64,000 nucleotides of DNA, taken from positions 62,001 through 126,000 of the forward strand of contig NZ_JAAMFN010000005.1 in NCBI RefSeq assembly GCF_013376095.1, written 5' to 3'. The translations under genes and the position numbers were made by a program. Each line of letters begins with the position of its first letter. Within the stretch, counting starts at the first letter, position 1. The stretch is from Arthrobacter sp. SDTb3-6 (GTDB taxonomy: Bacteria > Actinomycetota > Actinomycetes > Actinomycetales > Micrococcaceae). The notes beneath the pieces are model-generated. The model was not told where the DNA came from and did no database searches. It saw nothing but the letters and a program-made list of their open reading frames with translations. Shown here one piece after another: positions 11,645-49,364 of the stretch.

Positions 11645-11688
11645 GGTGGGCGATACTGGGTTCGAACCAGTGACCTCTTCGGTGTGAA
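11645..11688. other. attL: 44-bp core identical to 49291-49334
   Basis: The 44 bases are identical to 49291-49334 and comprise the 3' part of tRNA-Val(CAC), from the anticodon loop to the discriminator base plus two bases. Identity ends abruptly at 11689. The 5' half of the tRNA is absent here, so this is the displaced 3' fragment on the host side. A tyrosine integrase gene lies immediately inside, as expected for attL. Confidence 0.93.
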
Positions 11689-11713: not shown

Positions 11714-11803
11714 GTAGCCCCGTGTAGCGCGAACGCACTAAATCCGGCTCTGACCTGCGGCAATGCCCTATTTTCCGGGCACTAGCCGTAGTCCCGTGTA
11801 GCG
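11714..11803. repeat. Pair of 16-bp direct repeats near attL (candidate Int/Xis sites)
   Basis: GTAGCCCCGTGTAGCG (11714-11729) and GTAGTCCCGTGTAGCG (11788-11803) differ at one base and share orientation. They lie between the att core and the 22-bp arm repeats, and the second copy is within the 3' end of the integrase gene. Position and spacing fit recombinase or excisionase binding sites; this is inference. Confidence 0.55.
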
Positions 11804-13024
11804 TGGCGGGGTAACGCTTTGCGGTACGTTTGCGGTACGCGAACCGGCCCAGACCCCGCCGGCTGCGGCCGCCCGAACCGGCAAGGCCAACCCCTCGGCA
11901 ACATGCTCGGCGGGCAGCTCAGCCAGGTGGGCGTAGCGTTCCGTCGTCGACGAAGACGCATGCCCCAGCAGCCGTGAAACCTCCGCCAGGGGCACCCCGG
12001 ACTGAATCAACCAAGACGCATAGGTGTGGCGAAGGTCATGCGGACGCAGATCCCCCACCCCGGCAAGTTTCAGCGTCGGCCCCCACACCCGCTTGCGCCA
12101 GTTGTCCAGGTCCGTCATCGCCCCACGCCCATGCAGCACAAGCCCAGACCGGCACCGCCCCACCTGGTGGACATGCCCGCAGTCCGCGCTCGCAGCCGTC
12201 CCCAGTTCGTCCAGCAGGTCCGCCACCCAGTCCAGCAGCGGCACGGACCGGGCCAGCTTCCCCTTCGGGTACGGCTTGATCTTCCCCGAGGCGCTGTCCC
12301 AGGTCTCCACCACGTGGATCATCATGCGCTCGCGGTCCACGCGGTGGGCGTGCAGGCCCATGGCTTCGCCCCAGCGCATCCCGGAGCCGATGAGCAGCCC
12401 GATGATGGCGGCGTCGCGTTTGGAGTCCAGGACGGCGTCGAGGGCCTGGTATTCGGCCTTGGTGAGGTAGCGTTCCTGGGCGGGGGCGCGGCGCGGGAGT
12501 TGGAGCCGGTGGAGCGGGTTGGCATCGATGATTTCGGCGTCGACGGCGGCCATGATGGAGGCGTTGAAGATCCCGAAGATGCGTTGCACGCTGGAGGCGG
12601 CGAGCAGGTGGACGACGGGCTTGTATTTGGGGTCTTCCCGGCGTTTGAGTTCGGCGGCCGGCACGCGCCGTTCGGTGGCTGTGAGTTCGGCCAGCCACTT
12701 TCGGCCGGTGTGGCGTGTGATCTCGTCCAGGGGCGTGTCCTGCCATTTGGGCATGAGGTAGTGGTCCCGCAGGGTCAGCTCTGAGGCGGCGGTGGAGGAT
12801 TCGAGTTTGCGGGTGGGCCACCATTCCTCGCACCATTCCCCCCAGGGCCGGGCGGCGGCGGCAGGGTCGCGCCAGCCGCCGCTGCGGGATTCGGCTTCTT
12901 TGAGCGTGGCCGCGTTCAGGGCGGCCTTTTTGTGGGGGAAGCTGCCGGCGGAGCGTTCCTTGCCGTTGCCGTCCCTGTAGAGGCCCTGGTGTTTGCCGGA
13001 GGGCAGGAGTTTGGTCCATGCCAT
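11768..13024 (-). CDS. int: Tyrosine-type site-specific integrase
   Basis: The 418-residue integrase has an N-terminal arm-binding region (about 1-60), a SAM-like core-binding domain (about 60-190) and a catalytic domain. Catalytic residues seen are Arg in [12 protein letters not shown], His-x-x-Arg in [12 protein letters not shown], the GH of [13 protein letters not shown], and the Tyr of ERYAHL. It abuts attL and is the last gene of the leftward lysogeny transcript. Its last codons overlap the candidate arm-type repeats, so the gene end doubles as attachment-site DNA. Confidence 0.95.
11818..11839 (+). repeat. 22-bp arm-type repeat, left copy
   Basis: TTTGCGGTACG occurs twice in tandem here. 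The same 22 bases recur in the same orientation at 49186-49207, near the other prophage end. Tandem 11-mers near both att cores are typical of arm-binding sites for tyrosine integrases. The copy lies inside the integrase coding region. Confidence 0.7.
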
Positions 13025-15022: not shown

Positions 15023-15694
15023 TCAGTCCCCCTGTTCGTGTTCTTGAGTTTCTTCCCCGCGCTCCCCAGCGCGGGTTTCTTCTTCGGCGCCGTAGTTCGT
15101 TGAGCTATCGGCGGCGAGGTCGAAGTAGTTGGCCGGCAGCGGCACATTGCCGGCCGCGTCTGCGTCGGGATGGGCATGCTCATCTACGAATGGCATCTTG
15201 GGTTTCCGTTGCAAATGTGCGTCTTGCAAATTTGAAACGGAATTCGAAGGCAAAAAATTTTTGGGTGCAGGGCTCTCCCCTGCTTGGGTATTGGGGGCGG
15301 GGTGCTTTGCATTGCCCACCACCTCCTTGTCGCTGTCCGTTTGACGGTTGAGTTTCACGAGCTCGTGACCTAATGCGACATATGCGGCGTGTGCAGACTC
15401 GGGGAGTTTGCTTGAGCCGATTACGTGCAGGGAGTCCGGGTCGGAATCTGGGACGACCAGGTCAAGGGATCTGGCGGAGGCCATTACGATTTCCTTGATA
15501 CTGGCGCCGGTTCCTCTGGAGAGTGCCCGGATCGTTGCGGGATCGGGGAAGTTCTTCAAAGGTCCGTTGATCAACTGGTGGAGCCGCTTGTTTGATGGCG
15601 TGCCACCACAGGCGGCGGACAGGGCCTCGTAAGAGAGCCCGGCCGCTGCCTTGGCGTTCGCCAGTAGCGTTGCAAGATCCGGTTGAGTCATCAC
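15023..15694 (-). CDS. Phage immunity repressor (HTH N-terminus, disordered C-terminus)
   Basis: The first 75 residues form a Cro/C1-like helix-turn-helix (LSYEALSAACGG...NKRLHQLI...TIRALSRGTGAS). Residues about 120-223 are polar, acidic and repeat-poor, without a Ser/Lys peptidase site. It is the first gene of the leftward transcript, facing a divergent Cro-like gene across an operator-rich region. This is the normal layout for the repressor that keeps a prophage silent. Inactivation is more likely through the ImmA-like peptidase than by self-cleavage. Confidence 0.82.
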   Translation of the reverse strand: MMTQPDLATLLANAKAAAGLSYEALSAACGGTPSNKRLHQLINGPLKNFPDPATIRALSRGTGASIKEIVMASARSLDLVVPDSDPDSLHVIGSSKLPESAHAAYVALGHELVKLNRQTDSDKEVVGNAKHPAPNTQAGESPAPKNFLPSNSVSNLQDAHLQRKPKMPFVDEHAHPDADAAGNVPLPANYFDLAADSSTNYGAEEETRAGERGEETQEHEQGD

Positions 15695-26284: not shown

Positions 26285-26744
26285 GTGGGTGCACGTGGGG
26301 CAGCGGCCAAGCCAGCCCGACTGAAATTGATCCAGGGGCGAGGAAACGGCACAGACTCCGGTGGCCGCCCAGTCAACCTAGGTCCCGAGTTCAAGCGGAC
26401 CGCACCGGAGATGCCCGACTGGCTGACCGCCGAGGCGAAGGACGAGTGGCAGCGCGTTGTTCCCGGGCTGCAGGCCTTGGAGCTCCTGAAGCCGGAAGAC
26501 CGGGCAGTTCTCGCCGCATACTGCGAAACATGGGCGGAGTTCCGCAATGCCACCCGGGCCATCCAGGAAAACGGGTCACTTCTCATTGATGCGGCCCAGG
26601 GGACCATCCCACATCCGGCCGTGGCCCCGCCGCAATGCGGGCGCCCGCCTGCAATCCCTGGCGAAGGAATTCGGCATGACACCTTCCTCGGAGCAGGACC
26701 TGGCGAGGAGTGACACCGGTGGCGACGAAGACAACCCGTTCTAA
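26285..26744 (+). CDS. terS: Terminase small subunit (P27 family), apparent +1 frameshift
   Basis: TerS binds phage DNA and directs TerL to the packaging site. From GTG 26285 the protein matches the P27 type (MGARGAAAKPARLKLIQGRG, PEMPDWLTAEAKDEWQRVVP, IQENGSLLIDAAQGTIPHPA) up to about residue 115. The reading frame then turns un-family-like and stops at 26713. The expected C-terminus (RNAGARLQSLAKEFGMTPSS...DEDNPF) continues in the +1 frame to 26744. The switch lies at GCCCCGCCG, about 26622-26632. This may be a mutation, a sequencing error or a programmed shift. Confidence 0.85.
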
Positions 26745-28485
26745 GACAGGCCTCAAGCCAGAAGACTCCGATGCGTTCGGGCTGCCGACCACCGCGGTGC
26801 TCCGGCGTTTGAAGATCAGCCCCGAAGTCGCCTACTTCATGGTCTCCAGGGGCATCCCCCTGCCGGAGATACCGCCGAACATCAAAACCCCGGAGGGGCG
26901 CAGCCTCCGTAACGCCGTGTTCGACCCCGAACGCGTAGACAAGGTACTCAAGGCCTTCTCCCTCCTCCGGCACACCCAGGGCCGCCTGGCGGGGCAACCG
27001 CTGGTTCCGGACTCGTGGCAGGTCGCCTACATCATCGCCCCCGTTTTTGGGTGGGTGAAGAAGAACGAACACGGGGAATGGGTCCGTGTTGTTCGGACCC
27101 TCTACGTGGACGTTCCACGCAAGAATGGCAAGTCCACCATTTGCGGAGGGCTGGCGATCTACCTGACAGCAGCCGACGGTGAGGCCGGCGCGCAGGTCAT
27201 TGCGGCCGCAACGACGAAGGACCAGGCGTCGTTCGTGTTCGCTCCGATCAAGAAACTGGCGGAGTCCGCCCCAGCCCTCCGCGGCCGGGTCAAGGCCGTC
27301 ACCGGACGCATTATCCATCCCAAGTCGAATTCCTATTTCGGCGTGATCAGCTCCACCGCTGACGCCCAGCACGGCGCGAACCTTCACGGCGCGATCATTG
27401 ACGAACTACACATCCACAAGACGCCAGACCTGGTCGAAACCATCGAGACTGGTACAGGCTCCCGCGACCAGCCCCTGGTCGTGAAGATCACGACGGCCGA
27501 CACAGGCAAGCCGAACACGATCTACGCCCGCAACCGCAGGTATGTCGAGCAGCTCGCCCGTGGCGTGTTCAAGGACGCATCAACGTTCGGTGTCGTCTTT
27601 GCCGCCGATGAAACCGATGACCCGTTTTCCGAGCACACTCAGCGCAAGGCCAACCCCGGGTTCGGGATCAGCCCGACGCGGGAGTACTTGGAGACGGCTG
27701 CGAAGAAGGCCCGCAACTCGCCTGCCGAGCTGGCAAGTTACAAGCGCCTCCATCTTGGTCTGAGGACGAAGCAGACCACAAAGTTCATTGAGCTGAAGGC
27801 GTGGGAACGCAACGCTGGCGCTCGCATCCTTGAGGCCGATCTGCAAGGGCGTCATTGCTATGGCGGTCTTGACCTCGGTTCGGTGTCCGACTTGACCGCG
27901 TTGTGTTGGCTGTTCCCCAAGCCTGACGGGGTTGGGTACGACACGATTTACCGGTTTTGGACGCCTGAAGAAAACGTGGAGGCCCTGAACGAGAGGACGG
28001 CCGGTAATGCGGCGGACTGGGTCAGGAAGGGCTGGTTGGAGACTACTCCGGGCGACGTCACGGACTACGACTTCATCAAGACGAAGATGCTCGCGGACAT
28101 GCAGTCGTTCGATGTGGTTTCTGTCGGCTTCGACCGGTGGAACGCGACGCAGCTGGCCAATGATTTGCTCGGTGAGGGCGTGCCCTTGGTGAAGACGGGC
28201 CAGGGCTTCCTGACCATGTCTCCCCCGCTGAAGGAGATCCAGCGCCTTGTCCTCATGGGCAAGCGCGGTGATCCGAAGCTGACCCATGGCAGCAACCCCG
28301 TCATGCATTGGATGATCGACAACTTGGCTGTCGCGACGGATGCGGCGGGCAACGTGAAGCCGGACAAGGCCAACAGTGCCGACAAGATCGATGGAGTTTC
28401 GGCCCTGTGCAATGCCTTGAGCGAGGCGCTCAGCCTGGACTCCGGCCCGTCATCTTACAACGACCATGACTTGATCATCGCTTAG
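26710..28485 (+). CDS. terL: Terminase large subunit (HK97/Terminase_1 type)
   Basis: TerL is the packaging motor ATPase and nuclease. The 591-residue protein has a Walker A variant DVPRKNGKST, a Walker B GAIIDELHIH followed by the ITTAD coupling motif, and an RNase H-like nuclease domain beginning GLDLGSVSDLTALCW. A later acidic residue lies in VGFDRWNATQL. The start is GTG 26710, overlapping the terS reading frames; GTG 26722 is an alternative. It is followed by a small gene and the portal. Confidence 0.96.
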   Translation: MTPVATKTTRSKTGLKPEDSDAFGLPTTAVLRRLKISPEVAYFMVSRGIPLPEIPPNIKTPEGRSLRNAVFDPERVDKVLKAFSLLRHTQGRLAGQPLVPDSWQVAYIIAPVFGWVKKNEHGEWVRVVRTLYVDVPRKNGKSTICGGLAIYLTAADGEAGAQVIAAATTKDQASFVFAPIKKLAESAPALRGRVKAVTGRIIHPKSNSYFGVISSTADAQHGANLHGAIIDELHIHKTPDLVETIETGTGSRDQPLVVKITTADTGKPNTIYARNRRYVEQLARGVFKDASTFGVVFAADETDDPFSEHTQRKANPGFGISPTREYLETAAKKARNSPAELASYKRLHLGLRTKQTTKFIELKAWERNAGARILEADLQGRHCYGGLDLGSVSDLTALCWLFPKPDGVGYDTIYRFWTPEENVEALNERTAGNAADWVRKGWLETTPGDVTDYDFIKTKMLADMQSFDVVSVGFDRWNATQLANDLLGEGVPLVKTGQGFLTMSPPLKEIQRLVLMGKRGDPKLTHGSNPVMHWMIDNLAVATDAAGNVKPDKANSADKIDGVSALCNALSEALSLDSGPSSYNDHDLIIA

Positions 28486-30750: not shown

Positions 30751-32001
30751 ATGGACCCCAAGGTAAAGCTCGCAGCGCTCAACAACGAGGCTGCCGCACT
30801 GCGCAAGAAAGCACTTGAAAACGCCGCCGAATTCACGGAGGCGGACGCCACCCGGGCTGCCGAGATCGCAAAGGAACACGGTGAGCTCACGGCCCTGATC
30901 GAACGACAGAAGGCCGCCGCGGCGTCCCTGAACTTCGCCGGCGCCGGCACGTCCAGCCAGGAGAACACAGACACCCCGGACCAGTCCGCTGTCGGCAAGT
31001 CCATCGGCGCCCAGTTCGTCAAGTCGGAAGCCTACCGCGGCTTCCGCAAGAAGCACCCCTCCGGCGTCGGCAAAGACACCCCCATCAGCATCAAGGCCGA
31101 ACACCTCCGCGGCAGCGTAATCGCCAAGGTGGACCCTGCCCCGCTGGGCACGGCCGGGGCCGGCAACGCCCGCGCCGTCCGCACCAACGAGGTCGACGAC
31201 CTGGTCTACCGGCCCGCCCGTCGGCTGCTGGACCTGATCACCCGCGGCAACACGAACCTGCCCTGGTTCCAGTACCGCCAGGTCATCTCCAAGACCAACA
31301 ACGCCTCCATCGTGGCCGAGGCAGCTACCACGGCCGGCACCACGCCCGCGACCGGACTCAAGCCACTGTCCACGCTCACGACCACTACGGCGGACGCCAA
31401 GGCATTCACCTACGCGGACGGCATGGAGGTCACCAATCAGGAGCTCTCTGACGACGGCGTCATCCAGTCGCTGATCGACTCCACGCTGACGGAGAACCTC
31501 GAGATCGAGATCGAGAACATTCTCCTCAACGGTGCCGGCACGGCCGACGAGCCCGCAGGCATCTTCAACACCAGCGGCGTCCTCCAGCAGGCGTGGGCAA
31601 CGGACGTACCCACCACGGTCCGCAAGGCCATCACCAAGCTCCGCAATGCCTCCGGGGCGAACATCCGCGGCGTCCTCCTCAACCCGGAGGACGACGAGAC
31701 CTGGGACCTGCTCAAGGACTCCCAGGGCCGTTACCTGGGCGCCGGCCCGTTCGCATCCGGACCAAGCACGGCATGGGGGTACGAACGCATCAACTCCCAG
31801 GCGGTCCCGGTCGGCCAGGCCATCGCCGGTGACTTCGCCACCATCCACCTCCTGCAGCTCGAGGCGCTGTCCATCATGGCGTTCAACCAGCACAAGGACT
31901 ACGCCCAGCGCAACCTCACATACATCCGGGCGGAAGAGCGTGCCGTTCAGCTCATCCGCAATGCTGCCCGCCTGATCGTCATCGACCTGACGGCCGCCTA
32001 A
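30751..32001 (+). CDS. Major capsid protein (HK97 fold)
   Basis: The 416-residue capsid precursor has an N-terminal coiled-coil delta domain (about 1-65, LAALNNEAAALRKKALENAAEF...LIERQKAAAASL) that normally acts as a scaffold and is removed by the protease. The HK97 body follows, with DLITRGNTNLPWFQYRQV, a long backbone helix region and the C-terminal HLLQLEALSIMAFNQHKDYAQRNLTYIRAEER. AGAAGGAGACCCCAGAA precedes the ATG. Confidence 0.95.
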   Translation: MDPKVKLAALNNEAAALRKKALENAAEFTEADATRAAEIAKEHGELTALIERQKAAAASLNFAGAGTSSQENTDTPDQSAVGKSIGAQFVKSEAYRGFRKKHPSGVGKDTPISIKAEHLRGSVIAKVDPAPLGTAGAGNARAVRTNEVDDLVYRPARRLLDLITRGNTNLPWFQYRQVISKTNNASIVAEAATTAGTTPATGLKPLSTLTTTTADAKAFTYADGMEVTNQELSDDGVIQSLIDSTLTENLEIEIENILLNGAGTADEPAGIFNTSGVLQQAWATDVPTTVRKAITKLRNASGANIRGVLLNPEDDETWDLLKDSQGRYLGAGPFASGPSTAWGYERINSQAVPVGQAIAGDFATIHLLQLEALSIMAFNQHKDYAQRNLTYIRAEERAVQLIRNAARLIVIDLTAA

Positions 32002-39659: not shown

Positions 39660-40787
39660 GTGGCCGGCCCGTTCAGGATCGACATTTACGACAAGGGCTG
39701 CCGGTGGCTGGCCCCGCTCGGTGATTTGAAGTCAATCGAGGGGACAGTGCGGCACAATGAGATCTCCGAGGCGACACTGAAGGTTCCGGCGAACCATCAT
39801 CGGGCGGACCTGCTGGGCGCCCAGGGTGCCCGGCTCGGGATCAAGTTCCGTGGCGAGACGCTGATGACGGGCCCCATCAGGCAGCCCTCGGGTGCTGGCC
39901 CGGCCGTGGCCGGGGACCTGGTCTATGGTGTGCAGTCTGACTTCCGGTTGTTGCACAACGTCCTGGGCTGGCCGTCGCCGTCGAAGCCGTTGACGCAGCA
40001 GGGCGACGATGGCGCCTACTACACCATTGGCAAGTGGCCGGCCGAGACAATCGTCAAGGACGTGGTGGCCCGCAACATCGCGGACCGGCTCGGGTTCCCC
40101 CTCACGATCGCCCCTGACCAGGGACGCGGTGCCGTCATGGAGGCATCTTTCAGGATGCACCCGCTGTACGACAGGCTCTTCCCGGCTGTGGACACCGCGG
40201 GGATCGGCGTGACGGTGGCCATGGCCGCCGGCGGGCTGGTCTTGGACGTCTACGTCCCTCGCGTCTACCCGAACGTCCTGACGGAGCAGTCCCGGGTAAT
40301 CCAAAAATGGTCCTTCAGCGGGACGGGCCCGGAAGCGACTAGGGTCGTCATCGGTGGTCAGGGCCAGGGCAACCTGCGAACCTTCGACGCGGTCACGGAC
40401 GCCGTGCGGGAAACAGCGTGGGGTGACCTGATCGAGGTGTTCCGGGACGCCCGGGACACCGCCGACGGAACGACCTATCAGATGCGCGGCCAGGAAACCC
40501 TGGACGAAGCCGCACCCCGCGGCACCCTGACCGTGGAACTGGCCGAGACCGAACGGTTCCGCTACGGCGGGCCCAAAGGCGTCCACGTCGGGGACCTGGT
40601 CACCGCCCGCGTAGGTGCCGGCATCACCGTCACCGACGTGCTGCGGGAAATGTCGTTCTCCTTCGATCGCGACAACGGGTTGAAGCTCTCCTCCACGATC
40701 GGGCCCAAGGACGACGCCCTCGACCAACTCATGCAAGCAATCACGGCCCTCGCCCGAGGCGTCCACGACCTGAAAGCAGGGACCTAA
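39660..40787 (+). CDS. Tail hub protein (Gp37-like)
   Basis: A 375-residue protein from GTG 39660. Segments FRIDIYDKGCRWLAPLGDLKSI, DLVYGVQSDFRLLHNVLGWPSPSKP and GVHVGDLVTARVGAGITVTDVLREMSFSF match the siphovirus Gp37-like minor tail family that builds the tip hub. It is immediately downstream of the Dit-like gene with a 1-bp gap. Confidence 0.84.
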   Translation: MAGPFRIDIYDKGCRWLAPLGDLKSIEGTVRHNEISEATLKVPANHHRADLLGAQGARLGIKFRGETLMTGPIRQPSGAGPAVAGDLVYGVQSDFRLLHNVLGWPSPSKPLTQQGDDGAYYTIGKWPAETIVKDVVARNIADRLGFPLTIAPDQGRGAVMEASFRMHPLYDRLFPAVDTAGIGVTVAMAAGGLVLDVYVPRVYPNVLTEQSRVIQKWSFSGTGPEATRVVIGGQGQGNLRTFDAVTDAVRETAWGDLIEVFRDARDTADGTTYQMRGQETLDEAAPRGTLTVELAETERFRYGGPKGVHVGDLVTARVGAGITVTDVLREMSFSFDRDNGLKLSSTIGPKDDALDQLMQAITALARGVHDLKAGT

Positions 40788-41737
40788 TGGCCACCCCACC
40801 CGTCAGCTACGGCTACCCCGGATCCATCAACGCCGCCGCGCTCGCGGCCTGGCTGCCGGCGACGGCAGCAGCCCGCTTCAGTGTGGTGGGCGCCGACGAC
40901 TGGGCCGTGTCGGCGCTGGGCGGGCTGGACCGCGGCATCCGGATCAATGCCGGCACCGGCTGCGGTGACGGCATCATGGACGTCACGGCCGAGTACGAGA
41001 CGCTTTCACTGCCTCTTGTGGCATCCGGTTCCCAGTGGTTCCTGGTGGTGCGCCGCCGCAACTGGGCCACACCCGCGACCACGTCGCTGGCCATCATCCC
41101 TGGCACGTCGGAGAAAAAGTTGCCGGACCGTTCAGACACGCCAGGCCAGGAATCGGACCAGCCGCTGGCATTGTGCCGCGTCCAGGACGGCCAGACCCTC
41201 GTCCAGGAAATCATTGACCTGCGATGCTGGGCGGGTAATGGCGGCGTCGTCGTGGCGGACCTGCTGGCACGAGATTATTTGGCCCGGCCCGGCGCGGACC
41301 TGTTGTGCGGTTCCACCAGTTACCGCTACACGATGGGCGCCAACGGGGTGTGGTCATGGATTGACCAGTCCTCGACGCTCGTGAAGTCAGCCCCATTGGC
41401 TGGTGCCGTACGGCCAAGCTGGGCGCCACTCCGGACGTTCAACGGCGTCATTGACGCGAGCTCAGGTGCGGGCGGTGAGAACCGGACCGCCACATGGGCG
41501 ACGGACGCTGGCGGCGTGGGCGGGCTGTGGTTCGGCTACAACGGGCTTCCAACGTTCCAGGGCATATACAGCGTCCAGCTGACCGGTTACCACCCGCTCG
41601 TCGCGTTCATGCACCTGCCATCCCTCATGACAGTTTCCACCTCCCGGATCAAGTTCAAGGCCCGCCGGCTCGACAACAGCGGATGGGCCAACAACTACGG
41701 GCAGATCTCCATGGCCGTAGCCGTCACCGGCTGGTAG
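40787..41737 (+). CDS. Minor tail protein
   Basis: A 316-residue protein (MATPPVSYGYPGSINAAALAAWLPATAAARFSVVGAD...) whose N-terminal half resembles short baseplate-type proteins of actinobacteriophages. Its C-terminal half is beta-rich (LWFGYNGLPTFQGIYSVQLTGYHPLVAFM). It lies between the hub and spike genes and overlaps the hub stop by one base. It is likely part of the tail tip. Confidence 0.7.
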   Translation: MATPPVSYGYPGSINAAALAAWLPATAAARFSVVGADDWAVSALGGLDRGIRINAGTGCGDGIMDVTAEYETLSLPLVASGSQWFLVVRRRNWATPATTSLAIIPGTSEKKLPDRSDTPGQESDQPLALCRVQDGQTLVQEIIDLRCWAGNGGVVVADLLARDYLARPGADLLCGSTSYRYTMGANGVWSWIDQSSTLVKSAPLAGAVRPSWAPLRTFNGVIDASSGAGGENRTATWATDAGGVGGLWFGYNGLPTFQGIYSVQLTGYHPLVAFMHLPSLMTVSTSRIKFKARRLDNSGWANNYGQISMAVAVTGW

Positions 41738-41791: not shown

Positions 41792-43891
41792 ATGCCCGGA
41801 CCGTACCCCTACGAACCATTTTTCGCGGTCGACCCATCGAACGTGGCCAACGTGGCGACCAACGCGCAAATCGTGGTCTACGCTCCCGGTGATCCGACCA
41901 AGACGCCAGTGGACCTATGGAACCTGAGCCGGACCATGCCACTGCCAAACCCGTTCGCGACCGACGCGAGGGGCTTTGCCGAGGCACCCCTTCATGACAC
42001 CCTGCCCGTGCTCGTCTGGGACGGCGGAGGCTTCTCCAACACCATCGTCTCCGTCCAGGGACTGAAAGACGACGCGGAAGCTGCAGCCGGTGCCTCCCAG
42101 GCCTCGGCGGACTCGGCAGCAGTAGCCGCCGCGAACGCCACTGCCGCCGTGGATGCCAACATGTCTGCCGCCGTGGCTGATGCACAGTCTGCCGCCGACT
42201 CTGCCGCCACGTCCGCCGCGCTCGTGAACGCACCCGCCGACAACGTTACGGCGGCACTCGTGCGGAATCCGGCCACGGCTACAGCTGCAGCACTTGATGC
42301 CAGTATTGGCCCCGTTGCAGCAGGCAAAATTGAGAGTCGGCTGGCTGACTATGCGGCATCACTACGATCCGTCAGACTGGAGCTGGCTACCTATGACGGA
42401 AACCCCTCTACCACGCATCCGACCGTGGTAGATGCTGGTGTTGCTGGCTGGAATGGATACCGCTACTGGATGGCCCACACCCCCTACCCCGCGCAAGCGC
42501 GAGAGAACCCCTCAATTCTGGCCTCAAAGGACGGCGTGAACTGGGTTACCCCTGCCGGGCTTGTAAACCCCGTGGTGAGCTACGCGCAATACACGGGGCT
42601 TGGATACGACTATGGCTCTGACCCGGAACTTGTTTTGGTCGGCTCCAAATTGGTTATGTTTCACCGCCCCTCATCCGAGCTGAACGGCGTAAAGAAGGAA
42701 GCCGTCTACCGCATGGAATCCAGCGACGGGGTGACTTGGAACAGTCCCGGTGTGAAGGTGTTGGAAATGCCGACGCTCAACGCGTCGCTCATCGCACCGT
42801 CAATTTCCTACGACGGCACAACCATGACCATGTGGGTTGTCAACGGTGACGCGGTTCCATTGCGCATTGACAGGCGAACCAGCACCGACGCCGGGCTAAC
42901 TTGGTCCTCACCGACCGCGTGCACACTCAACAGCGGCTCGCACGTGCCTTGGCATATCGGCGTCACCAAAATGGGCGGCGTCTATTACATGGCGTCAAAC
43001 TCAAAAGCGGCACCGGCCAATGAGTGCGTCCTACTCACATCCACCGATGGATTGACATGGAATATCGTCAAAGGTTCGGCATTGCCACGCTCCGGCGACT
43101 GGTACGACGCATACGGCTACTACCGAACCTGCCTCATTCCATCCACCGCCATGCCCGGGCGCTTTGATGTATACGCATCAACAATGACAAGCGTTTCCGG
43201 CCAGCGCAGCATCTCCCTATACAAGTCATTCGACTGGGTTAGTAGCGGGAATACCTCCCTCAAGGCGGCAGTGGACGCCATCAAGGCACTTGATGATCCC
43301 TACAAACTCATCGACTCATTCGACGGTAGGGTCAGCGCTGACAGCAACATTGGCATGCCAGACATCGGGCCCGCATGGGTGCCAGTCAATGTGGCTTCAT
43401 CGGCCGTCAGGTTGCTGGGCGGGGTGATGTTTCTTGCCCAAGGAGCAACCCCGTCAGGATGTCACCTCTCAAGCAACGTTGAAACCGGCAACGGCGAATT
43501 GTCAGCCGACATCATTGCCCGCCCCTCCGGCCAAGTTGATTGCGGCCTCACCGCCCGATACTTGGACGAAAACAACTTCATTGGCGCGTCCCTAGTGATC
43601 AGTATCGACAACACGACCACCAACCGGCTCAGGCTCAAGACCCGAATCGCCGGGGTCGAAACAACACTCATTGACGTCACGAATCCTGGGTTTGTTCGAG
43701 GTACTGCCAAGCGCCTGAAAATGAAGATCGTTGGTGATCAACTCGCGGCATATGTCGCAGGCAAACAGGTTGCCACGGCAACCATCCCTCCCAGTGCTAT
43801 GACGGCTTTGACGGCGGCAACAAAGGTCACCTGTCAGGGTTACAACGACAACACCAGTGGGTTCGATAACGTCAGCTTCAAGGCGCTCTAG
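41792..43891 (+). CDS. Tail spike / receptor-binding protein with propeller-like domain
   Basis: A 699-residue protein. Residues 1-95 are a tail-attachment domain (MPGPYPYEPFFAVDPSNV, RTMPLPNPFATDARGFAEAP). Residues about 95-190 are an Ala/Ser-rich coiled coil (AEAAAGASQASADSAAVAAAN). Residues about 200-500 resemble a sialidase-type beta-propeller with Asp-box-like repeats (ILASKDGVNWVTP, RMESSDGVTWNSP, STDAGLTWSSP, LTSTDGLTWNIV). The last 180 residues form a concanavalin-like sandwich. It probably binds or trims host surface glycan. Confidence 0.82.
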   Translation: MPGPYPYEPFFAVDPSNVANVATNAQIVVYAPGDPTKTPVDLWNLSRTMPLPNPFATDARGFAEAPLHDTLPVLVWDGGGFSNTIVSVQGLKDDAEAAAGASQASADSAAVAAANATAAVDANMSAAVADAQSAADSAATSAALVNAPADNVTAALVRNPATATAAALDASIGPVAAGKIESRLADYAASLRSVRLELATYDGNPSTTHPTVVDAGVAGWNGYRYWMAHTPYPAQARENPSILASKDGVNWVTPAGLVNPVVSYAQYTGLGYDYGSDPELVLVGSKLVMFHRPSSELNGVKKEAVYRMESSDGVTWNSPGVKVLEMPTLNASLIAPSISYDGTTMTMWVVNGDAVPLRIDRRTSTDAGLTWSSPTACTLNSGSHVPWHIGVTKMGGVYYMASNSKAAPANECVLLTSTDGLTWNIVKGSALPRSGDWYDAYGYYRTCLIPSTAMPGRFDVYASTMTSVSGQRSISLYKSFDWVSSGNTSLKAAVDAIKALDDPYKLIDSFDGRVSADSNIGMPDIGPAWVPVNVASSAVRLLGGVMFLAQGATPSGCHLSSNVETGNGELSADIIARPSGQVDCGLTARYLDENNFIGASLVISIDNTTTNRLRLKTRIAGVETTLIDVTNPGFVRGTAKRLKMKIVGDQLAAYVAGKQVATATIPPSAMTALTAATKVTCQGYNDNTSGFDNVSFKAL

Positions 43892-43902
43892 GGTCGAGGG
43901 GC

Positions 43903-43918
43903 AGAGCCGGTCGGCTCT
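43903..43918. terminator. Hairpin between convergent spike and acyltransferase genes
   Basis: AGAGCC and GGCTCT form a 6-bp stem with a GGTC loop in the 27-bp gap between the two convergent stops. It is short but could serve both transcripts. Confidence 0.45.
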
Positions 43919-45967
43919 TCACTTTAGATGAAGGGTCGCTTGGATTTCTTTCCATAGGGGCGTCACCATTTGCCGGCTGAAGGTTGCAGTGAGGTGGTCA
44001 GCATCTCGGTAGACGAGTGTGTCTCCAAAAATGACGGGACATGTCGTGGCATTGCAAAAGTAATGCACAAAATCGACATATCGGGCGCCAGTGGATCTGG
44101 CTGCGGCTCGTTCGGCCTCGATAATATCCGTCGAGAGCGCAGAGACACGGTCCCTGTCACACCGAACTGTTGACTCGAGGTGCATTGAAAGGCAGACTGC
44201 CGGGGTGCCGGCCTGAGTTGGAACGTCGGAAATGACCATTGTTTTACTTGTACCAAATGCGAAAATTGTAGATTCAAGCCCTTTTTGCCAACGAGCAGAA
44301 AAGTTGCCATTGCCGCCCACGAGTTGCACATTCCTGTAATTGGCCAGGACCACAATATCCGGGTGTAGTGCGGTCATCCGCTTGACGGCAGCCTCGCGCC
44401 ACACCTGGCAAGCCTTGTACGCAACGCCATTATGAAGTGTCGGTATGTTGACTGAGGGGCATGCGTTCTTTGTGCTGCTGTCAAGCCGAATCTTCCCGGC
44501 CTTGGCCAATTGCTCGAGTGCCGGATACCAGCTTGATGAGTGGGAATCTCCAAACAAGACGACAAGCGGTGCGGCGGCATTGGTTCCAACTTGGCAGCCT
44601 GACGCATCGGTACTGTCGAAACTGACATGGCATCCCAGCGCATAGGATGCCGCGGTGTCTTCGAATGCCAGTCGAAGGGAGGGTTTTAGGTTGGAGGGCA
44701 CGAAGGGAGTCCCGGTCGGCTGGACCTCGATGGCTTTCTGGCTCGCGGTTTGGTTGGTGGAGAGTTGAATTTGATTCGAGGCGGTGAATGCGGTGAACGC
44801 AAGCGCGATGACAAGGCCGGAGGCTGCGAGAGCAACAACGAACGTATTCCGTGGCCGTCCGTGCGCCAGTGGCCGGTACCTCATGGCAGGCTCTTCAACC
44901 CATCGGAAAAGGAGCCATGCCAGCGGAACGGAAGCCAGCCCAAGCAGCAACCGGACAAGCAATGGCAGGGGTTCGCCGCTGCCAACGAACGCTTGCGGTA
45001 TGACCTGCAATGGCCAGTGAACAAGGTAGAGCGAGTACGAAATCTTTCCAATGAACTGCAAGATACCTGCGCCCAGTAACCGACCGCTCGACAGCCGGCT
45101 TTCGGCGCCGCCGCCGACAATGAGCAGGGCCGTGGCAAGCACTGGGAGCGCGGCGTAGAACCCGGGAAAAGGAGTTGACGAATCGTAGCTGAATCCAATG
45201 ACGAGAAGCGACACTAGTCCGATCCACGCAAGCAATCCGGTCGAGGGGCGTTTCAGCCATGCCCATCCAGATCGAACTACGAACGCAACCAAGGCGCCGA
45301 CCCCCAGCTCCCATGCGCGGGTGGGAAGCGAGAAGAACGTCCATGGTTGGGAAATGTCCATGCCGACAACGCAAAGAACGAATGAGGCTAAAGTCAATGC
45401 TGCCACCATGGCAAGGAGCACTCGTTGATTGCGCCTGAAAATCCAGAATCCGACAGCCAGGATTGCTGGCCAAAAAATGTAGAACTGTTCCTCAATCCCA
45501 AGGGACCAGTAATGCTGGAAAACGGATGGGGTGCTCTCGCTGAGATAGTTCGTTCCCTGGTAGGCGAACAACATGTTCGGAGCGTACAGGGCAGTCGCGA
45601 CCGCGCCGTGCCAAACCTCTTTCATAAGCAATGGCGGCATCCAGATCCAGGACGCGACTGTCGTAAGCCCGGCTACAAGAAGCGCGGCCGGCAGAATTCT
45701 CCTCGCACGCTTGGCGTAGAAATTACCGAACCGGATCGATCCCTCGCGATCCAGCATCCGCAGGAGTTGCCCTGTTATCAGGAAGCCAGATATGACAAAG
45801 AAGACGTCAACCCCGACATACCCACCACTCAAGGGCTTAAGACCAGCGTGGTAAGCGACAACAAAGAGCACGGCAATGGCGCGAAGCCCCTGTATGTCGA
45901 GTCTAAATGGTTCCTTGACAGTCGCCCTAGTCGCCAATTCAGCTTGTGCGGTTGCGCCAGACGGCAT
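43919..45967 (-). CDS. Membrane acyltransferase 3 with C-terminal SGNH domain (OafA-like), antisense in the late region
   Basis: The protein is 682 residues. Residues about 20-370 are an acyltransferase-3 domain with about ten membrane spans (FRLDIQGLRAIAVLFVVAYH with the catalytic-type His; GGYVGVDVFFVISGFLITG). The C-terminal extracytoplasmic SGNH domain has FGDSHSSSW and a closing RDADHL (Asp-x-x-His). This architecture O-acetylates surface polysaccharide. I chose ATG 45967 (GGGGG 7 bp upstream), since a GTG at 46018 has no ribosome site. GC is visibly lower than in the flanks, and it is antisense to the late operon: a lysogenic-conversion gene. Confidence 0.9.
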   Translation of the reverse strand: MPSGATAQAELATRATVKEPFRLDIQGLRAIAVLFVVAYHAGLKPLSGGYVGVDVFFVISGFLITGQLLRMLDREGSIRFGNFYAKRARRILPAALLVAGLTTVASWIWMPPLLMKEVWHGAVATALYAPNMLFAYQGTNYLSESTPSVFQHYWSLGIEEQFYIFWPAILAVGFWIFRRNQRVLLAMVAALTLASFVLCVVGMDISQPWTFFSLPTRAWELGVGALVAFVVRSGWAWLKRPSTGLLAWIGLVSLLVIGFSYDSSTPFPGFYAALPVLATALLIVGGGAESRLSSGRLLGAGILQFIGKISYSLYLVHWPLQVIPQAFVGSGEPLPLLVRLLLGLASVPLAWLLFRWVEEPAMRYRPLAHGRPRNTFVVALAASGLVIALAFTAFTASNQIQLSTNQTASQKAIEVQPTGTPFVPSNLKPSLRLAFEDTAASYALGCHVSFDSTDASGCQVGTNAAAPLVVLFGDSHSSSWYPALEQLAKAGKIRLDSSTKNACPSVNIPTLHNGVAYKACQVWREAAVKRMTALHPDIVVLANYRNVQLVGGNGNFSARWQKGLESTIFAFGTSKTMVISDVPTQAGTPAVCLSMHLESTVRCDRDRVSALSTDIIEAERAAARSTGARYVDFVHYFCNATTCPVIFGDTLVYRDADHLTATFSRQMVTPLWKEIQATLHLK

Positions 45968-46006
45968 GCCAATTCCCCCAAAAGTTTTCGAATGGACCTC
46001 GAGCAG

Positions 46007-46012
46007 TTTATA
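46007..46012 (-). promoter_or_regulatory. Candidate -10 element for the acyltransferase
   Basis: TATAAA is read on the minus strand 40 bp ahead of ATG 45967. The -35 region is poor (ATTAGT at 17 bp). It supports transcription of this gene independent of the late operon and the shorter start. Confidence 0.4.
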
Positions 46013-46082
46013 GGCCACTTAGCTCGTCGACTAATCCCTTGGTCCGGGGCCACAAAATTTCCGTTAAGTTCCTCACCCGCCA

Positions 46083-46172: not shown

Positions 46173-46418
46173 GTGGAGCAGGCAGCATCGACCACCATCA
46201 CCGGCCTGCTGGCCCAGCTGGGCATCGCCGGGATCATCCTCGCGGTGCTCGTTGCCGGGGCGGCGTGGTATCTCAAGACGTCCAAGGAGTTGCGGGAGGA
46301 AAAGCGTGGCGTCATCTCCGATCTCGAGGCGAAGGTCAGGGAGCTCGAGAGTGAAAAGTCCAGGCTCCAGCGGGAGCTTTACAAGTGCCAGTTTCCTGGC
46401 TGGAGGGATGACCAATGA
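46173..46418 (+). CDS. Small single-span membrane protein with coiled coil (lysis region)
   Basis: An 81-residue protein from GTG 46173 (GGGAGGGCTAAAT upstream). It has one membrane span (about 8-33, ITGLLAQLGIAGIILAVLVAGAAWYL) followed by a charged coiled coil (SDLEAKVRELESEKSRLQREL). Location just before the other lysis-region genes suggests a holin accessory or membrane-anchored lysis factor. It overlaps the next gene by 4 bp. Confidence 0.68.
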   Translation: MEQAASTTITGLLAQLGIAGIILAVLVAGAAWYLKTSKELREEKRGVISDLEAKVRELESEKSRLQRELYKCQFPGWRDDQ

Positions 46419-47083
46419 GTCAGCTTGAGCGCAAGAGGAACATTTTGGGGGCGGTCTTGCTGTCCCTGGTCGTGGTCCTGTTGGCGGCCTTGGTGTGGCA
46501 GAACTTCCAGTCGTCGGCGGAGCGGGACACGGCCCAGTCGTCGGCGGCCACCCAGGCGCAGCAAAAGAAGAACCTGGCGGAGGAGGTCGCGGACGCCTGC
46601 GAGTCGGGGCAGGTGGTGAAGTCCTCGGCTGGCGTGGACTTGTGCGCCAGGGCGGCAACGATCGCGCAGCAGCCCGTGACGATCGAGGGGCCTGCCGGTC
46701 CGCCCGGCCCCCGGGGCCTGCCGGGCAGGGACGGGACGGATGGCGCCACCGGCCCTGCGGGGGTGGCGGGCGGGAACGGCCCTGCCGGGACCAACGGCAG
46801 TGACGGCACGGATGGCGCCCAGGGCCCGGCAGGTCCGCCGGGTGCGCAGGGTGTGGCCGGGGCCAACGGCGCCGACGGCGCACCCGGGCAGCCAGGCGCG
46901 GATGGTGCCACGGGAGCCAAGGGAGCGGACGGACGTGGCGTCCAAGGCGTCGAATGCGTCGGCGATGGCGCTGCGTCGTACTGGCTGATCACCTACACCG
47001 ACGGCACCACGGCCCAGTCCACCGGGCCCTGCCGGCTCACCCAGCCCGAACCATCCCCCACCGCGGTGCACACCGCCCCGTAA
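46415..47083 (+). CDS. Membrane-anchored collagen-like protein
   Basis: A 222-residue protein with one N-terminal span (about 10-28, LGAVLLSLVVVLLAALVW) and a coiled-coil stalk (about 30-75). About 30 Gly-x-y triplets follow at roughly 92-178, including GPAGPPGPRGLPGRDG. A small C-terminal domain has two cysteines (VECVGDG, GPCRL). Phage collagen-like repeats usually trimerise tail fibres; a membrane-anchored one beside lysis genes is uncommon. The role is unknown. Confidence 0.82.
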   Translation: MSQLERKRNILGAVLLSLVVVLLAALVWQNFQSSAERDTAQSSAATQAQQKKNLAEEVADACESGQVVKSSAGVDLCARAATIAQQPVTIEGPAGPPGPRGLPGRDGTDGATGPAGVAGGNGPAGTNGSDGTDGAQGPAGPPGAQGVAGANGADGAPGQPGADGATGAKGADGRGVQGVECVGDGAASYWLITYTDGTTAQSTGPCRLTQPEPSPTAVHTAP

Positions 47084-47144: not shown

Positions 47145-48191
47145 ATGGCCAATTACGCCATCAACTATGCACGCCCGGCAAAGTCGCTGCTCAAGCTCCG
47201 CGATGAATTGAACGCGGTGTTCCCCGGCCGGTTCACGGGCACGGACGGCTTCATCACCGGCTACGACTCGCAGGCCAACCCGCGCTACGGGGTGTCCGGG
47301 CACAACCCGAACAGCCTGGGCCACGTCATGGCGTTCGACATTTCCACCACGGCCAACGGCTTGCAGATTGACGAGGCCGCGGGGCGGGCGCTGGCCGAGT
47401 ACCTGCGGACCAAGGCGTACGAAAAGTTCCGCTACCTGATCCATGACATGTCCGCCGGCGCCCCGGACGGGAAGATCGCCGGGGACTTCTCCCAGTGGGC
47501 GTGGTCCGACTACGCCGGCGTGGACCACTCGGACCACATCCATCTCAGCATCACCGACGACTACCAGTGGGGGGAGTCCTGCGGGACGACCCAGGCCGTC
47601 TACGACGATGAATCCTCCTGGGGCATCGCCGCCTGGTGGGCCGCGTTCAAGGCCGGCGCCGCGGCCCCGGTGGTCAAGCCTGCCGGGTCCGTCGTCAAGC
47701 CTGTACCCGTCAATCCTGCCCCGGCCCGGCCCAACACCTTTGTGGCGACCGTGGACCCCGGCGACACGCTCACCTCGATTGCCCAGCAGTTCGGGACCAC
47801 CGTGGCCGCGCTCCTGGCCGTCAACACCATCCCTGATCCCAACCGGATCAGCGCCGGGCAGAAAATGAACATCCCACGCACGCCGGCCGCGAAGCCGCAG
47901 CCTGCACCGGCCAAGCCCGCACCGGCCCCTGCCCCGGCGCTGGTGAACCGCATCGTCACCAACCCCGTCGCCTGGGTACGCACCGCACCACGCTCCGGAG
48001 CCCCCCTCGCCCCCGGATACCCCCGCGGCATCCCCAAGGGCCAGCCCATAGCCGTGAAGGGATTCGTAGTCGGTGAAAACCCGTACGGCACGACCCCGCC
48101 GGACAACGCCTGGTACGTCACCAAATCCGGCTACTACGTCTGGGCCAACGCCGCACAAAACACCATCGCCGGCCTCCGGAACCTCACATGA
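47145..48191 (+). CDS. Endolysin: M15-like peptidase with LysM and C-terminal SH3-like domain
   Basis: A 348-residue protein. The N-terminal domain (1-150) has metal ligands of the D-Ala-D-Ala carboxypeptidase type: His60 and Asp65 in SLGHVMAFDI, and HxH in DHSDHIHLS. A Pro/Ala-rich linker follows, then a LysM peptidoglycan-binding repeat at about 193-237 (TVDPGDTLTSIAQQFGTTVAALLAVN). A further Pro/Ala linker leads to an SH3-like C-terminus (about 262-348). It has no signal peptide, so release depends on a holin. GAAAGGGGCACCACC precedes the ATG. Confidence 0.86.
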   Translation: MANYAINYARPAKSLLKLRDELNAVFPGRFTGTDGFITGYDSQANPRYGVSGHNPNSLGHVMAFDISTTANGLQIDEAAGRALAEYLRTKAYEKFRYLIHDMSAGAPDGKIAGDFSQWAWSDYAGVDHSDHIHLSITDDYQWGESCGTTQAVYDDESSWGIAAWWAAFKAGAAAPVVKPAGSVVKPVPVNPAPARPNTFVATVDPGDTLTSIAQQFGTTVAALLAVNTIPDPNRISAGQKMNIPRTPAAKPQPAPAKPAPAPAPALVNRIVTNPVAWVRTAPRSGAPLAPGYPRGIPKGQPIAVKGFVVGENPYGTTPPDNAWYVTKSGYYVWANAAQNTIAGLRNLT

Positions 48192-48700: not shown

Positions 48701-49239
48701 CGCGTTGTGTGCCCCACGTCACGAAAAAACCGCCGGGCACTCGAAAGAGCCAGGCGGTTCACTCGCGTCCTTCCATATTGGGAGATCGGAAGGACAAGCA
48801 GCAGGCTACAGCGGCGCCTGCGAAACAGCCAATCGAGATCACATCCAACGGTTAGGGCACTTTGCGGGTTGTTCCCGGCATGGTGGAAGGTGACGCAGGT
48901 CTCGTAACATAGTTGCGTCCAGCTAATTATGGGTTTATTTTCAGCTTGGGCCGATATGGCTGTGGTCTCAGTTCCCCAACTTCGACCACAGCGCCCGGTC
49001 CAACCCCAATTCGTACGCGTGGTGGCAGTACTCACCTCCACTGGTCCTGCGCGTGCGACACCGCGGCGCCCGTCTTGGCTAATACCAGGGCGGGTGCCGT
49101 CCGTGGTTAAGGGATGTTTTCCCAGAGAGTCCCGTGGTGTGACGCTTCGTTACGCGGCAGTCCCGCCAGGGCTTTGCAAAAACGTTTTGCGGTACGTTTG
49201 CGGTACGTTGCCGATTTCAATCCCAAATTTGAGGCAAAG
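48701..49239. other. Prophage right-end non-coding region
   Basis: I see no convincing gene here. An inverted repeat AACCGCC...GGCGGTT (48728-48734 and 48753-48759) with a flanking A-run reads as a weak terminator on the minus strand. An AT-richer patch lies at 48900-48950. The 22-bp arm repeat sits at the right end. The region probably belongs to the attachment-site arm and may hold a small RNA or promoter. Confidence 0.5.
49186..49207 (+). repeat. 22-bp arm-type repeat, right copy
   Basis: TTTGCGGTACG in tandem, identical to 11818-11839 and in the same orientation, 84 bp inside attR. This makes a P/P' pair of arm sites for the integrase likely. Confidence 0.7.
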
Positions 49240-49285
49240 AAAAAGCCCTCCTGACCAGTGTTTGTGCTGGTCACGAGGGCTTTTT
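49240..49285. terminator. Phage-supplied terminator for tRNA-Val
   Basis: AAAAAGCCCTCCTGACCAG with a near-complement around TGTTTGTG, flanked by A and T runs. It lies inside attR, just 3' of the restored tRNA-Val (minus strand). It resembles the displaced host terminator at 11596-11639 but with altered arms, so the phage carries its own functional copy. Confidence 0.85.
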
Positions 49286-49290
49286 GTCTC

Positions 49291-49334
49291 GGTGGGCGAT
49301 ACTGGGTTCGAACCAGTGACCTCTTCGGTGTGAA
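49291..49334. other. attR: 44-bp core identical to 11645-11688
   Basis: The core is the 3' part of tRNA-Val(CAC). Here it is joined to the 5' part, so the tRNA is intact. Phage DNA lies to the left. The identity ends within the anticodon loop, the usual crossover zone for tyrosine integrases. Confidence 0.93.
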
Positions 49335-49364
49335 CGAAGCGCGCTACCACTGCGCCAATCGCCC
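49293..49364 (-). tRNA. tRNA-Val (anticodon CAC), prophage integration target
   Basis: The 72-nt cloverleaf has the acceptor pair GGGCGAT/ATCGCCC, the T-arm CTGGTTCGAACCCAG and the anticodon stem CTTCG-TTCACAC-CGAAG with anticodon CAC. CCA is not encoded. Its 3' half is supplied by the prophage, preserving function. Confidence 0.96.

What the first reader, a model, noticed from the sequence alone, without database searches (positions are those of the whole stretch)
43919..46018. Antisense surface-acylation gene between tail and lysis genes: lysogenic conversion
A complete OafA-like acyltransferase with a C-terminal SGNH domain (FGDSHSSSW, DADH) lies on the minus strand inside the plus-strand late operon. 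It has lower GC and its own -10 candidate. It sits next to the spike gene, whose propeller-like domain may recognise surface glycan. The likely effect is O-acetylation of host surface polysaccharide, blocking adsorption of the same phage type.
Basis: partly seen in the sequence, partly recalled or inferred. Interest (0 to 1): 0.68.

Follow-up and report, generated by a model that had tools for sequence, protein, structure and literature searches.

The report
Prophage acetyltransferase beside deacetylase-like tail spike
A dormant virus inside a bacterium carries, back to back with the gene for its host-recognising spike, a gene that probably adds acetyl groups to the cell-surface sugar coat; many related viruses keep other sugar-modifying genes at this same spot, most likely so that infected cells become unrecognisable to similar viruses.

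Summary
An intact AT3-SGNH acyltransferase gene lies antisense between the tail spike and the lysis genes of an apparently complete prophage (11645-49334, in tRNA-Val); the likelier start is ATG 45967 (682 aa). Lysogenic conversion is well supported by comparison, not proven. Of 32 phages and prophages sharing the spike's N-terminal domain, 22 carry a surface-glycan enzyme after the spike genes (AT3, GDSL esterase, Wzy_C, hexapeptide acetyltransferase or glycosyltransferase), 18 of the 22 antisense; the 14 isolated phages among the 32 all carry an integrase. In close relatives the spike tip and the region after it are replaced together. AT3-SGNH genes at this kind of position fall in at least three clades. 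New: the spike's propeller matches the Flavonifractor GalNAc deacetylase (profile E 7e-49; Z 34, next entry 24.7), so the spike may itself be a deacetylase. Best reading: in the lysogen the enzyme O-acetylates the glycan that the spike recognises, excluding related phage. Known principle (Sf6, Acinetobacter prophages); new variant in Gram-positive actinophages. Target glycan, expression and phenotype are untested.

The parts
43919..45967 (-). AT3-SGNH surface-glycan O-acyltransferase (682 aa; listed ORF runs to GTG 46018)
45968..46030 (-). leader: Shine-Dalgarno GGGGG 45979-45975; -10-like TATAAACT 46012-46005 (unproven)
   Evidence: sequence, by eye; scan found no consensus promoter
43892..43918 (.). 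27-bp gap between the convergent stops, with short hairpin AGAGCC-GGTC-GGCTCT (43903-43918), by eye
41792..42298 (+). spike gene, conserved N-terminal part (virion attachment inferred); its first 107 codons are shared by 32 loci
42299..43891 (+). spike gene, exchangeable C-terminal part: propeller domain homologous to GalNAc deacetylase (about 42359-43260) plus a poorly modelled beta-rich C-terminus
   Evidence: low GC
40787..41737 (+). virion structural protein before the spike (phrog_13571)
39660..40787 (+). Gp37-like minor tail protein
46173..46418 (+). small protein (membrane/coiled-coil by eye) at the start of the lysis-side genes
   Evidence: only a sub-cut-off Pfam match
46415..47083 (+). 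collagen-like tail protein
47145..48191 (+). endolysin with LysM
11768..13024 (-). integrase
15023..15694 (-). transcriptional repressor-like
26710..28485 (+). terminase large subunit
30751..32001 (+). major capsid protein
11645..11688 (.). attL core, 44 bp identical to the 3' end of tRNA-Val
49291..49334 (.). attR core inside tRNA-Val(cac) 49291-49364

Best explanation
The gene encodes a membrane O-acyltransferase. The AT3 domain passes an acyl group (most likely acetyl) from CoA across the membrane, and the outward SGNH domain puts it on a surface glycan. It is cargo of a temperate phage, read opposite to the late genes, so it can be expressed from its own promoter in the lysogen. It sits in a conversion slot: in related phages the spike tip and the slot region are exchanged together. 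The spike next to it is probably a glycan deacetylase or a deacetylase-derived glycan binder. O-acylation of its glycan in the lysogen would stop spikes of the same phage type from recognising or processing the receptor (superinfection exclusion, and release of virions from debris). Shown: gene, domains, catalytic residues, prophage, slot, co-exchange in several pairs, spike homology. Inferred: expression, acyl = acetyl, target glycan, effect on adsorption.
For: AT3-SGNH domains with all catalytic motifs; best solved match is the OafB SGNH domain 6SE1 (Z 20.5, 238 residues, 3.5 A; membrane part to HGSNAT Z 14.4, 271 residues, 5.0 A). Slot census: 22 of 32 loci with a surface-glycan enzyme, 20 of them over the Pfam cut-off; base rate in this genome 3 AT3, 9 GDSL_2 and 0 Wzy_C matches in 4.31 Mb. 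18 of the 22 antisense. 14 of 14 phages have an integrase. Co-exchange: Zucker/Bauer 99.1% identical to about nt 489 of the spike, no match through spike tip and slot, 87.9% again before the integrase; similar breaks at spike nt 510-521 in Pitbull/Hum25 and Shoya/BrayBeast/Sarge, and at nt 317 in window/G001a. Repeated recruitment: AT3-SGNH genes at this kind of position fall in at least three separate supported clades. The 64% homologue lies near GMP/PMI-, pyruvyl transferase-, flippase- and TuaC-like genes. Spike propeller to GalNAc deacetylase. Precedents: Sf6 Oac blocks Sf6 superinfection (PMC9558356, passages); OafB gives phage resistance (PMC12423673, passages).
Against: No expression, chemical or adsorption data. 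No consensus promoter found. 10 of 32 loci have no recognised cargo. In Pitbull/Hum25 and in Shoya against BrayBeast or Sarge the endolysin region is replaced too, in window/G001a the lysis side also differs, and BrayBeast and Sarge have no recognised cargo, so only Zucker/Bauer is a clean swap of spike tip plus slot within the 16 kb compared. Pairing is not strict: spikes of G227 and Bauer are alike (39% over 352 aa) but their slots are AT3 and GDSL; slots of G167 and Bauer are 66% alike but their spikes show no match beyond residue 220. The acceptor is unknown, and OatA-like peptidoglycan acetylation has the same architecture. The spike is only 26% identical to the deacetylase, and activity may be lost.
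Confidence: 0.67

Rival explanations
1. The enzyme is an OatA-type peptidoglycan O-acetyltransferase: it protects the lysogen's wall from lysozyme or from endolysins of competing phages, not from adsorption.
For: Same AT3-SGNH architecture as OatA (PMC9558356, passages); host is Gram-positive (inferred from relatives); the endolysin gene is close by, and in some relatives the endolysin is replaced together with the spike tip.
Against: Best solved match is the O-antigen enzyme OafB; the closest homologue lies in an exported-polysaccharide locus; other slots hold Wzy_C and glycosyltransferase genes that do not fit peptidoglycan. The SGNH comparison is not decisive: PatB structures follow at Z 14-15.
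Confidence: 0.15
2. A host-fitness moron: acylation changes surface charge, desiccation or grazing resistance and has nothing to do with phage receptors; the slot is only a tolerated insertion point.
For: 21 of 23 genomes of the genus, this one included, have an AT3-SGNH or AT3 homologue (the surroundings of most were not examined); the slot lies at a transcription boundary where insertions do little harm (gene orders).
Against: Recognised cargo at the slot was always surface-glycan chemistry (22 of 22; the other 10 loci had none recognised), and spike tip and slot region change together.
Confidence: 0.15
3. A passenger gene copied from a host polysaccharide locus, silent or without function in the prophage.
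For: Sister to a chromosomal gene of G001 (support 100/99); low GC3 (0.616); no consensus promoter.
Against: Intact frame with all catalytic residues; good Shine-Dalgarno; recurrent presence of such genes at the site.
Confidence: 0.05

Closest known systems
OafA/OafB AT3-SGNH O-antigen acetyltransferases (Salmonella); 6SE1 = OafB SGNH domain
   Same: Domain order, catalytic motifs, fold; OafB is reported to give phage resistance (PMC12423673, passages)
   Different: Host makes no LPS O-antigen (inferred); acceptor unknown; here on a prophage beside the spike
Phage-borne O-antigen acetylases (PHROG 6705; Sf6 Oac; D3, PMG1, Lederbergvirus homologues)
   Same: Temperate-phage cargo, family match 1.8e-128; homologues annotated in D3, PMG1 and others; Sf6 Oac blocks Sf6 superinfection (PMC9558356, passages)
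   Different: Gram-positive host; the Shigella phage enzyme is AT3-only; of 68 phage records matched, the 9 covering 80% or more of this protein are actinophages or unnamed faecal phages; the spike here resembles a deacetylase, not an endoglycosidase
Acinetobacter prophages with depolymerase plus Wzy (PMC13228068, passages)
   Same: Receptor-degrading spike and capsule-altering gene in one prophage; the authors speculate protection from relatives and report the wzy gene shared together with the depolymerase C-terminal end between prophages
   Different: Gram-negative capsule; Wzy instead of acyltransferase (though Wzy_C genes fill some related slots here)
AT3-SGNH genes of actinophages Peas, LonelyBoi, Murp, BritBrat
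   Same: Gene at the end of the tail gene run (directly after an annotated tail gene in three, after hypothetical genes in Murp), antisense in Peas, LonelyBoi and Murp, sense in BritBrat; all four have an integrase
   Different: Different AT3-SGNH clade; no role is discussed in the passages found in PMC5559632 (BritBrat)
Flavonifractor plautii GalNAc deacetylase (6N1A/6N1B), for the spike
   Same: Propeller domain, profile E 7e-49, Z 34.0 over 295 residues at 2.6 A
   Different: 26% identity; part of a phage spike; substrate unknown
TarP, prophage-encoded teichoic acid glycosyltransferase of Staphylococcus aureus (PMC9650247, search listing only)
   Same: Gram-positive prophage enzyme altering a surface polymer
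   Different: Glycosylation, not acylation; the listing says nothing of a spike

Membership tests
AT3-SGNH carbohydrate O-acyltransferases (OafA/OafB type) | AT3 domain followed by C-terminal SGNH domain | tested here: met
   PF01757 41-371 and PF19040 463-685 of the 699-aa ORF
AT3-SGNH carbohydrate O-acyltransferases (OafA/OafB type) | R/K-x10-H in TM1 and RxxR (motifs from PMC9558356) | tested here: met
   R29, H40, R87, R90 invariant in 23 rows
AT3-SGNH carbohydrate O-acyltransferases (OafA/OafB type) | SGNH catalytic Ser, Asp, His | tested here: met
   GDSH 473-476; D655 and H658 of DADH
AT3-SGNH carbohydrate O-acyltransferases (OafA/OafB type) | Transfers an acyl group to a surface glycan | not testable with these tools
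   needs enzymology or NMR
OatA peptidoglycan O-acetyltransferase | Acetylates peptidoglycan sugars | not testable with these tools
   same architecture; nearest solved match is OafB, PatB lower, which does not decide the acceptor
Lysogenic (sero)conversion system | Carried by a temperate phage | tested here: met
   integrase, 44-bp att repeat at tRNA-Val
Lysogenic (sero)conversion system | Surface-polysaccharide-modifying enzyme expressed in the lysogen | not testable with these tools
   enzyme class yes; expression unknown; promoter scan negative
Lysogenic (sero)conversion system | Changes the receptor and blocks the same phage type | not testable with these tools
   only comparative support
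GalNAc deacetylase family of 6N1A (spike) | Sequence and fold homology over the propeller | tested here: met
GalNAc deacetylase family of 6N1A (spike) | Active-site residues kept | tested here: inconclusive
   conserved His, Glu, Asp and Trp-His positions of alignment A3 line up with 6N1A, but which residues are catalytic was not read from a source

The most novel reading that the evidence does not exclude
Temperate phages of the window's bacterial family carry an exchangeable cassette: a spike tip that edits acyl groups on a surface glycan (deacetylase or esterase) and, back to back, a lysogen-expressed enzyme that writes, erases or rebuilds the same glycan (acyltransferase, secreted esterase, polymerase, glycosyltransferase). 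Phages thereby swap receptor specificity and the matching self-exclusion in one recombination event; in the window a GalNAc-deacetylase-like spike is matched by an O-acyltransferase.
Probability: 0.32. Interest if true: 0.78.

Novelty: new variant of a known kind. Interest (0 to 1): 0.6.

Why it matters
Receptors of most actinophages are unknown (established knowledge, not searched). If the slot gene regularly alters what the neighbouring spike reads, each cassette hints at the chemistry of its receptor. Nine isolated Arthrobacter phages here have a recognised slot enzyme, most of them isolated on one laboratory host, Arthrobacter globiformis B-2979, so receptor identity and superinfection exclusion become directly testable in a Gram-positive host. 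It would also show that the Sf6/Acinetobacter principle was reached repeatedly, with acyl editing as a common currency.

Tried and rejected
Chance ORF: rejected. GTG 46018 as start: set aside in favour of ATG 45967. Sialidase reading of the spike (Pfam BNR_2, 28.8 bits, below its 31.4 cut-off): replaced by the deacetylase match. Idea that slot esterases are copies of their own spike's esterase domain: not supported; of eight GDSL slots whose own spike was in the comparison, only that of G050 has its own spike as best spike match. Strict one-to-one pairing of spike type and slot type: contradicted by two cases. Spike N-terminus outside the family: an order-wide sample gave 5 of 396 genomes, all five in the window's own family; the tool scores at most 12 candidates a genome, so absence is not proven. 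Viral contigs with the spike N-terminus: 8 pattern matches, none confirmed. The 27 viral-contig loci with an AT3 relative were not examined for context, apart from two used in alignment and tree.

Limits of the census: spike matches of G083, G337, G226, G165 and G383 are weak (E 1.8e-9 to 2.7e-7), and my tblastn did not see those of G337, G226 and G383; for these one search's coordinates were used. 'After the spike' includes spikes split over several genes (Hum25, Bauer, AbbyDaisy, Maja, G238, G227, G383 and others), and small ORFs lie between spike and slot gene in Bauer, MrSmee, G227 and G337. Loci counted as without recognised cargo: G001b (L154), G094, G031, G083, G226, BrayBeast, Sarge, ArV2, MargaretKali, Kumotta. 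Small unknown ORFs in BrayBeast (131 aa), Sarge, ArV2, G031 and G226 were not scanned; the 85-aa one of BrayBeast had no match; MargaretKali's next gene matches Laminin_G_3 and was taken as spike material. MargaretKali and Kumotta are near-identical (99.95%) and three prophages come from one genome (G001), so the 32 are not independent. L156/G016 lacks the spike N-terminus by tblastn and was dropped before the census. My gene calls in the G loci come from a simple codon score, not a gene finder. In one search one query (hol48073) was taken in a wrong frame; its lack of hits is not used.

Literature: searches for actinophage acetyltransferase conversion found nothing describing it (term finds in PMC5559632 and PMC5513430); this covers only the held open-licence library.

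Full report
WHAT IS THERE. The minus-strand ORF 43919-46018 is real. It has an Acyl_transf_3 domain and a fused SGNH domain, both well over the Pfam cut-offs, and matches the phage family PHROG 6705, 'O-antigen acetylase', at 1.8e-128. The more likely start is ATG 45967, behind a strong Shine-Dalgarno; the GTG at 46018 lies just before a -10-like TATAAACT. The homologue in genome G001 (64% identical) begins at the corresponding ATG. The 682-aa model has mean pLDDT 90.7. Its SGNH part fits OafB (6SE1; Z 20.5, 238 residues, 3.5 A) and its membrane part fits HGSNAT (Z 14.4, 271 residues, 5.0 A). The residues of R29-x10-H40, R87xxR90, GDSH and DxxH are invariant in 23 aligned proteins; the AT3 motifs are those named in the review PMC9558356 (passages).

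THE ELEMENT. A 44-bp repeat equal to the 3' end of tRNA-Val(cac) bounds 11645-49334. Inside are an integrase next to attL, a repressor-like gene, a ParB-like gene, terminase and capsid genes, minor tail genes, the spike, the acyltransferase, a collagen-like protein and the endolysin. About 5.7 kb from terminase to capsid is 74.6% identical in DNA to Arthrobacter phage RootBeer.

THE SLOT. The spike's N-terminal domain (107 aa) was found at 18 places in 16 of 395 genomes of the family (the window is one of the 18) and in 14 distinct Arthrobacter phages. I looked at what follows the spike gene or genes in all 32 and scanned candidate slot genes with Pfam. Genomes, 13 of 18: AT3-SGNH in the window, G272 and G337; AT3 in G001c, G227 and G052; GDSL esterase in G238, G284, G050, G167 and G165; Wzy_C in G001a; GT4 glycosyltransferase in G383; nothing recognised in G001b, G094, G031, G083 and G226. 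Phages, 9 of 14: AT3 with a GDSL-like C-terminus in Hum25; AT3 in MrSmee; GDSL in Bauer, AbbyDaisy and Shoya, and below cut-off in RootBeer; Wzy_C in Maja, and below cut-off in Zucker; hexapeptide acetyltransferase in Pitbull; nothing recognised in BrayBeast, Sarge, ArV2, MargaretKali and Kumotta. Total 22 of 32, 20 over cut-off. 18 of the 22 are antisense to the spike; G001a, G001c, G337 and MrSmee are not. 8 of the 9 slot esterases show an N-terminal hydrophobic segment, fitting export. For scale, this genome has 3 AT3, 9 GDSL_2 and 0 Wzy_C matches in 4.31 Mb, the window's own gene included, while those three families fill 18 of 32 slots over cut-off. All 14 phages have an annotated integrase. 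Four further actinophages with other spikes (Peas, LonelyBoi, Murp, BritBrat) have an AT3-SGNH gene at the end of the tail gene run, antisense in the first three, all four with an integrase. Limits of this census are listed under Tried and rejected.

EXCHANGE AS A UNIT. In the 16 kb compared, Zucker and Bauer are 99.1% identical up to about nucleotide 489 of the spike gene, share nothing through spike tip and slot, and match again (87.9%) before the integrase. In Pitbull/Hum25 the match stops at spike nucleotide 520 and resumes after the slot; in Shoya/BrayBeast/Sarge it stops at 510-519 and resumes further right. These are less clean: the endolysin region differs too in Pitbull/Hum25 and in Shoya against the other two, and BrayBeast and Sarge have no recognised cargo. 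The window and prophage G001a are 75.3% identical to 42108 (spike nucleotide 317) and then differ, lysis side included, until the tRNA. MargaretKali and Kumotta are identical throughout, spike included. In the window the spike's C-terminal part (GC 0.571) and the acyltransferase (0.562) form one low-GC block between the spike N-terminus (0.661) and the lysis side (0.62-0.73). The coupling is not strict: similar spikes with different slots and similar slots with different spikes also occur.

ORIGIN. In a tree of 38 AT3-SGNH proteins the window's gene is sister to a chromosomal gene of G001 (100/99), then Glaciibacter and Rhodococcoides genes. The genes of G337, BritBrat, Peas, LonelyBoi and Murp form another clade (100/100); G272 falls in a third with a Mycobacterium and a viral-contig gene (100/99); Hum25 is apart on a long, unsafe branch. 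Such genes thus came to this kind of position at least three times. Near the G001 homologue are GMP/PMI-, pyruvyl transferase-, flippase- and TuaC-like genes, matched below the NCBIfam cut-offs. The host's own, more distant AT3-SGNH gene (31%) sits with UDP-galactopyranose mutase, galactofuranosyltransferase and an ABC transporter ATPase. Both contexts point to exported polysaccharides as candidate acceptors.

THE SPIKE. The propeller part of the spike matches the N-acetylgalactosamine deacetylase of Flavonifractor plautii by profile (E 7.1e-49; next best 5.4e-6) and by structure (Foldseek top hits 1.8e-16 and 4.3e-16; Z 34.0, 295 residues, 2.6 A, against Z 24.7 for the next entry). The model is good only in the propeller (blocks 76-94 for residues 11-240; overall 65.5). 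That this is an active deacetylase, and on which sugar, is not shown. Of 26 other spikes or spike-tip genes scanned with Pfam, 14 have an acyl-removing domain over cut-off: GDSL in G284, G050, G165, G052, G227, G083, Hum25, Bauer, BrayBeast, RootBeer and Maja; SASA in MrSmee; polysaccharide deacetylase in G272 and Kumotta. Seven had no match (G001a, G001b, G001c, Zucker, Pitbull, Sarge, AbbyDaisy gp28), and five (G167, Shoya, G031, G337, ArV2) had other or sub-cut-off matches. The spikes of G238, G094, G226, G383 and MargaretKali were not scanned. Klebsiella prophage spikes with SGNH domains have been shown to be esterases (PMC13123978, passages).

MECHANISM. Most likely the lysogen O-acylates its surface glycan so that the spike of the same phage type no longer binds or processes it. 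Sf6 Oac does this for Sf6 (PMC9558356, passages), OafB gives phage resistance (PMC12423673, passages), and the Acinetobacter authors speculate the same for prophages with Wzy and depolymerase (PMC13228068, passages). Expression, acceptor and phenotype are inference. The promoter is not shown.

NOVELTY. The principle is known in Gram-negative phages, and joint transfer of a depolymerase end with its wzy gene is reported in Acinetobacter. What I did not find in the papers searched (listings, with passages read only where named) is a conversion slot in Gram-positive Arthrobacter-type phages, its exchange with the spike tip, and its pairing with deacetylase-type spikes. Hence a new variant of a known kind.

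Noticed in passing
41792-43891: The spike's propeller is homologous to the Flavonifractor GalNAc deacetylase, not a sialidase, so the phage may deacetylate its receptor.
   Followed up: yes
11606-11628 and 49251-49273; 11818-11839 and 49186-49207: Besides the 44-bp att core there are a 23-bp repeat and a 22-bp repeat (tandem TTTGCGGTACG) near both ends, candidate extension of att and integrase arm sites.
   Followed up: no
L152 10793-13760: The 64% homologue of the acyltransferase in G001 has a transposase-like ORF (by eye) just downstream, so it may be mobile within the polysaccharide locus.
   Followed up: no
L227 4923-11877: The host's own AT3-SGNH gene is in a galactofuran locus (Glf, GlfT2, ABC ATPase) and clusters with genes of four other genomes of the genus.
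   Followed up: partly
L030 9260-13348: In Glaciibacter the 51% homologue lies between a GDSL esterase gene and, convergently, a pectate-lyase-like gene, an arrangement like the spike slot; whether it is in a prophage was not tested.
   Followed up: partly
18834-20231: ParB-like partition gene in the early region of the prophage.
   Followed up: no
L190 1779-3836: In G050 the slot esterase is most similar to the esterase domain of its own spike among the spikes compared, a possible duplication.
   Followed up: partly
L178 6720-7667 and L179 6935-7657: Between otherwise near-identical phages Pitbull and Hum25 the endolysin gene is replaced as well as the spike tip.
   Followed up: no
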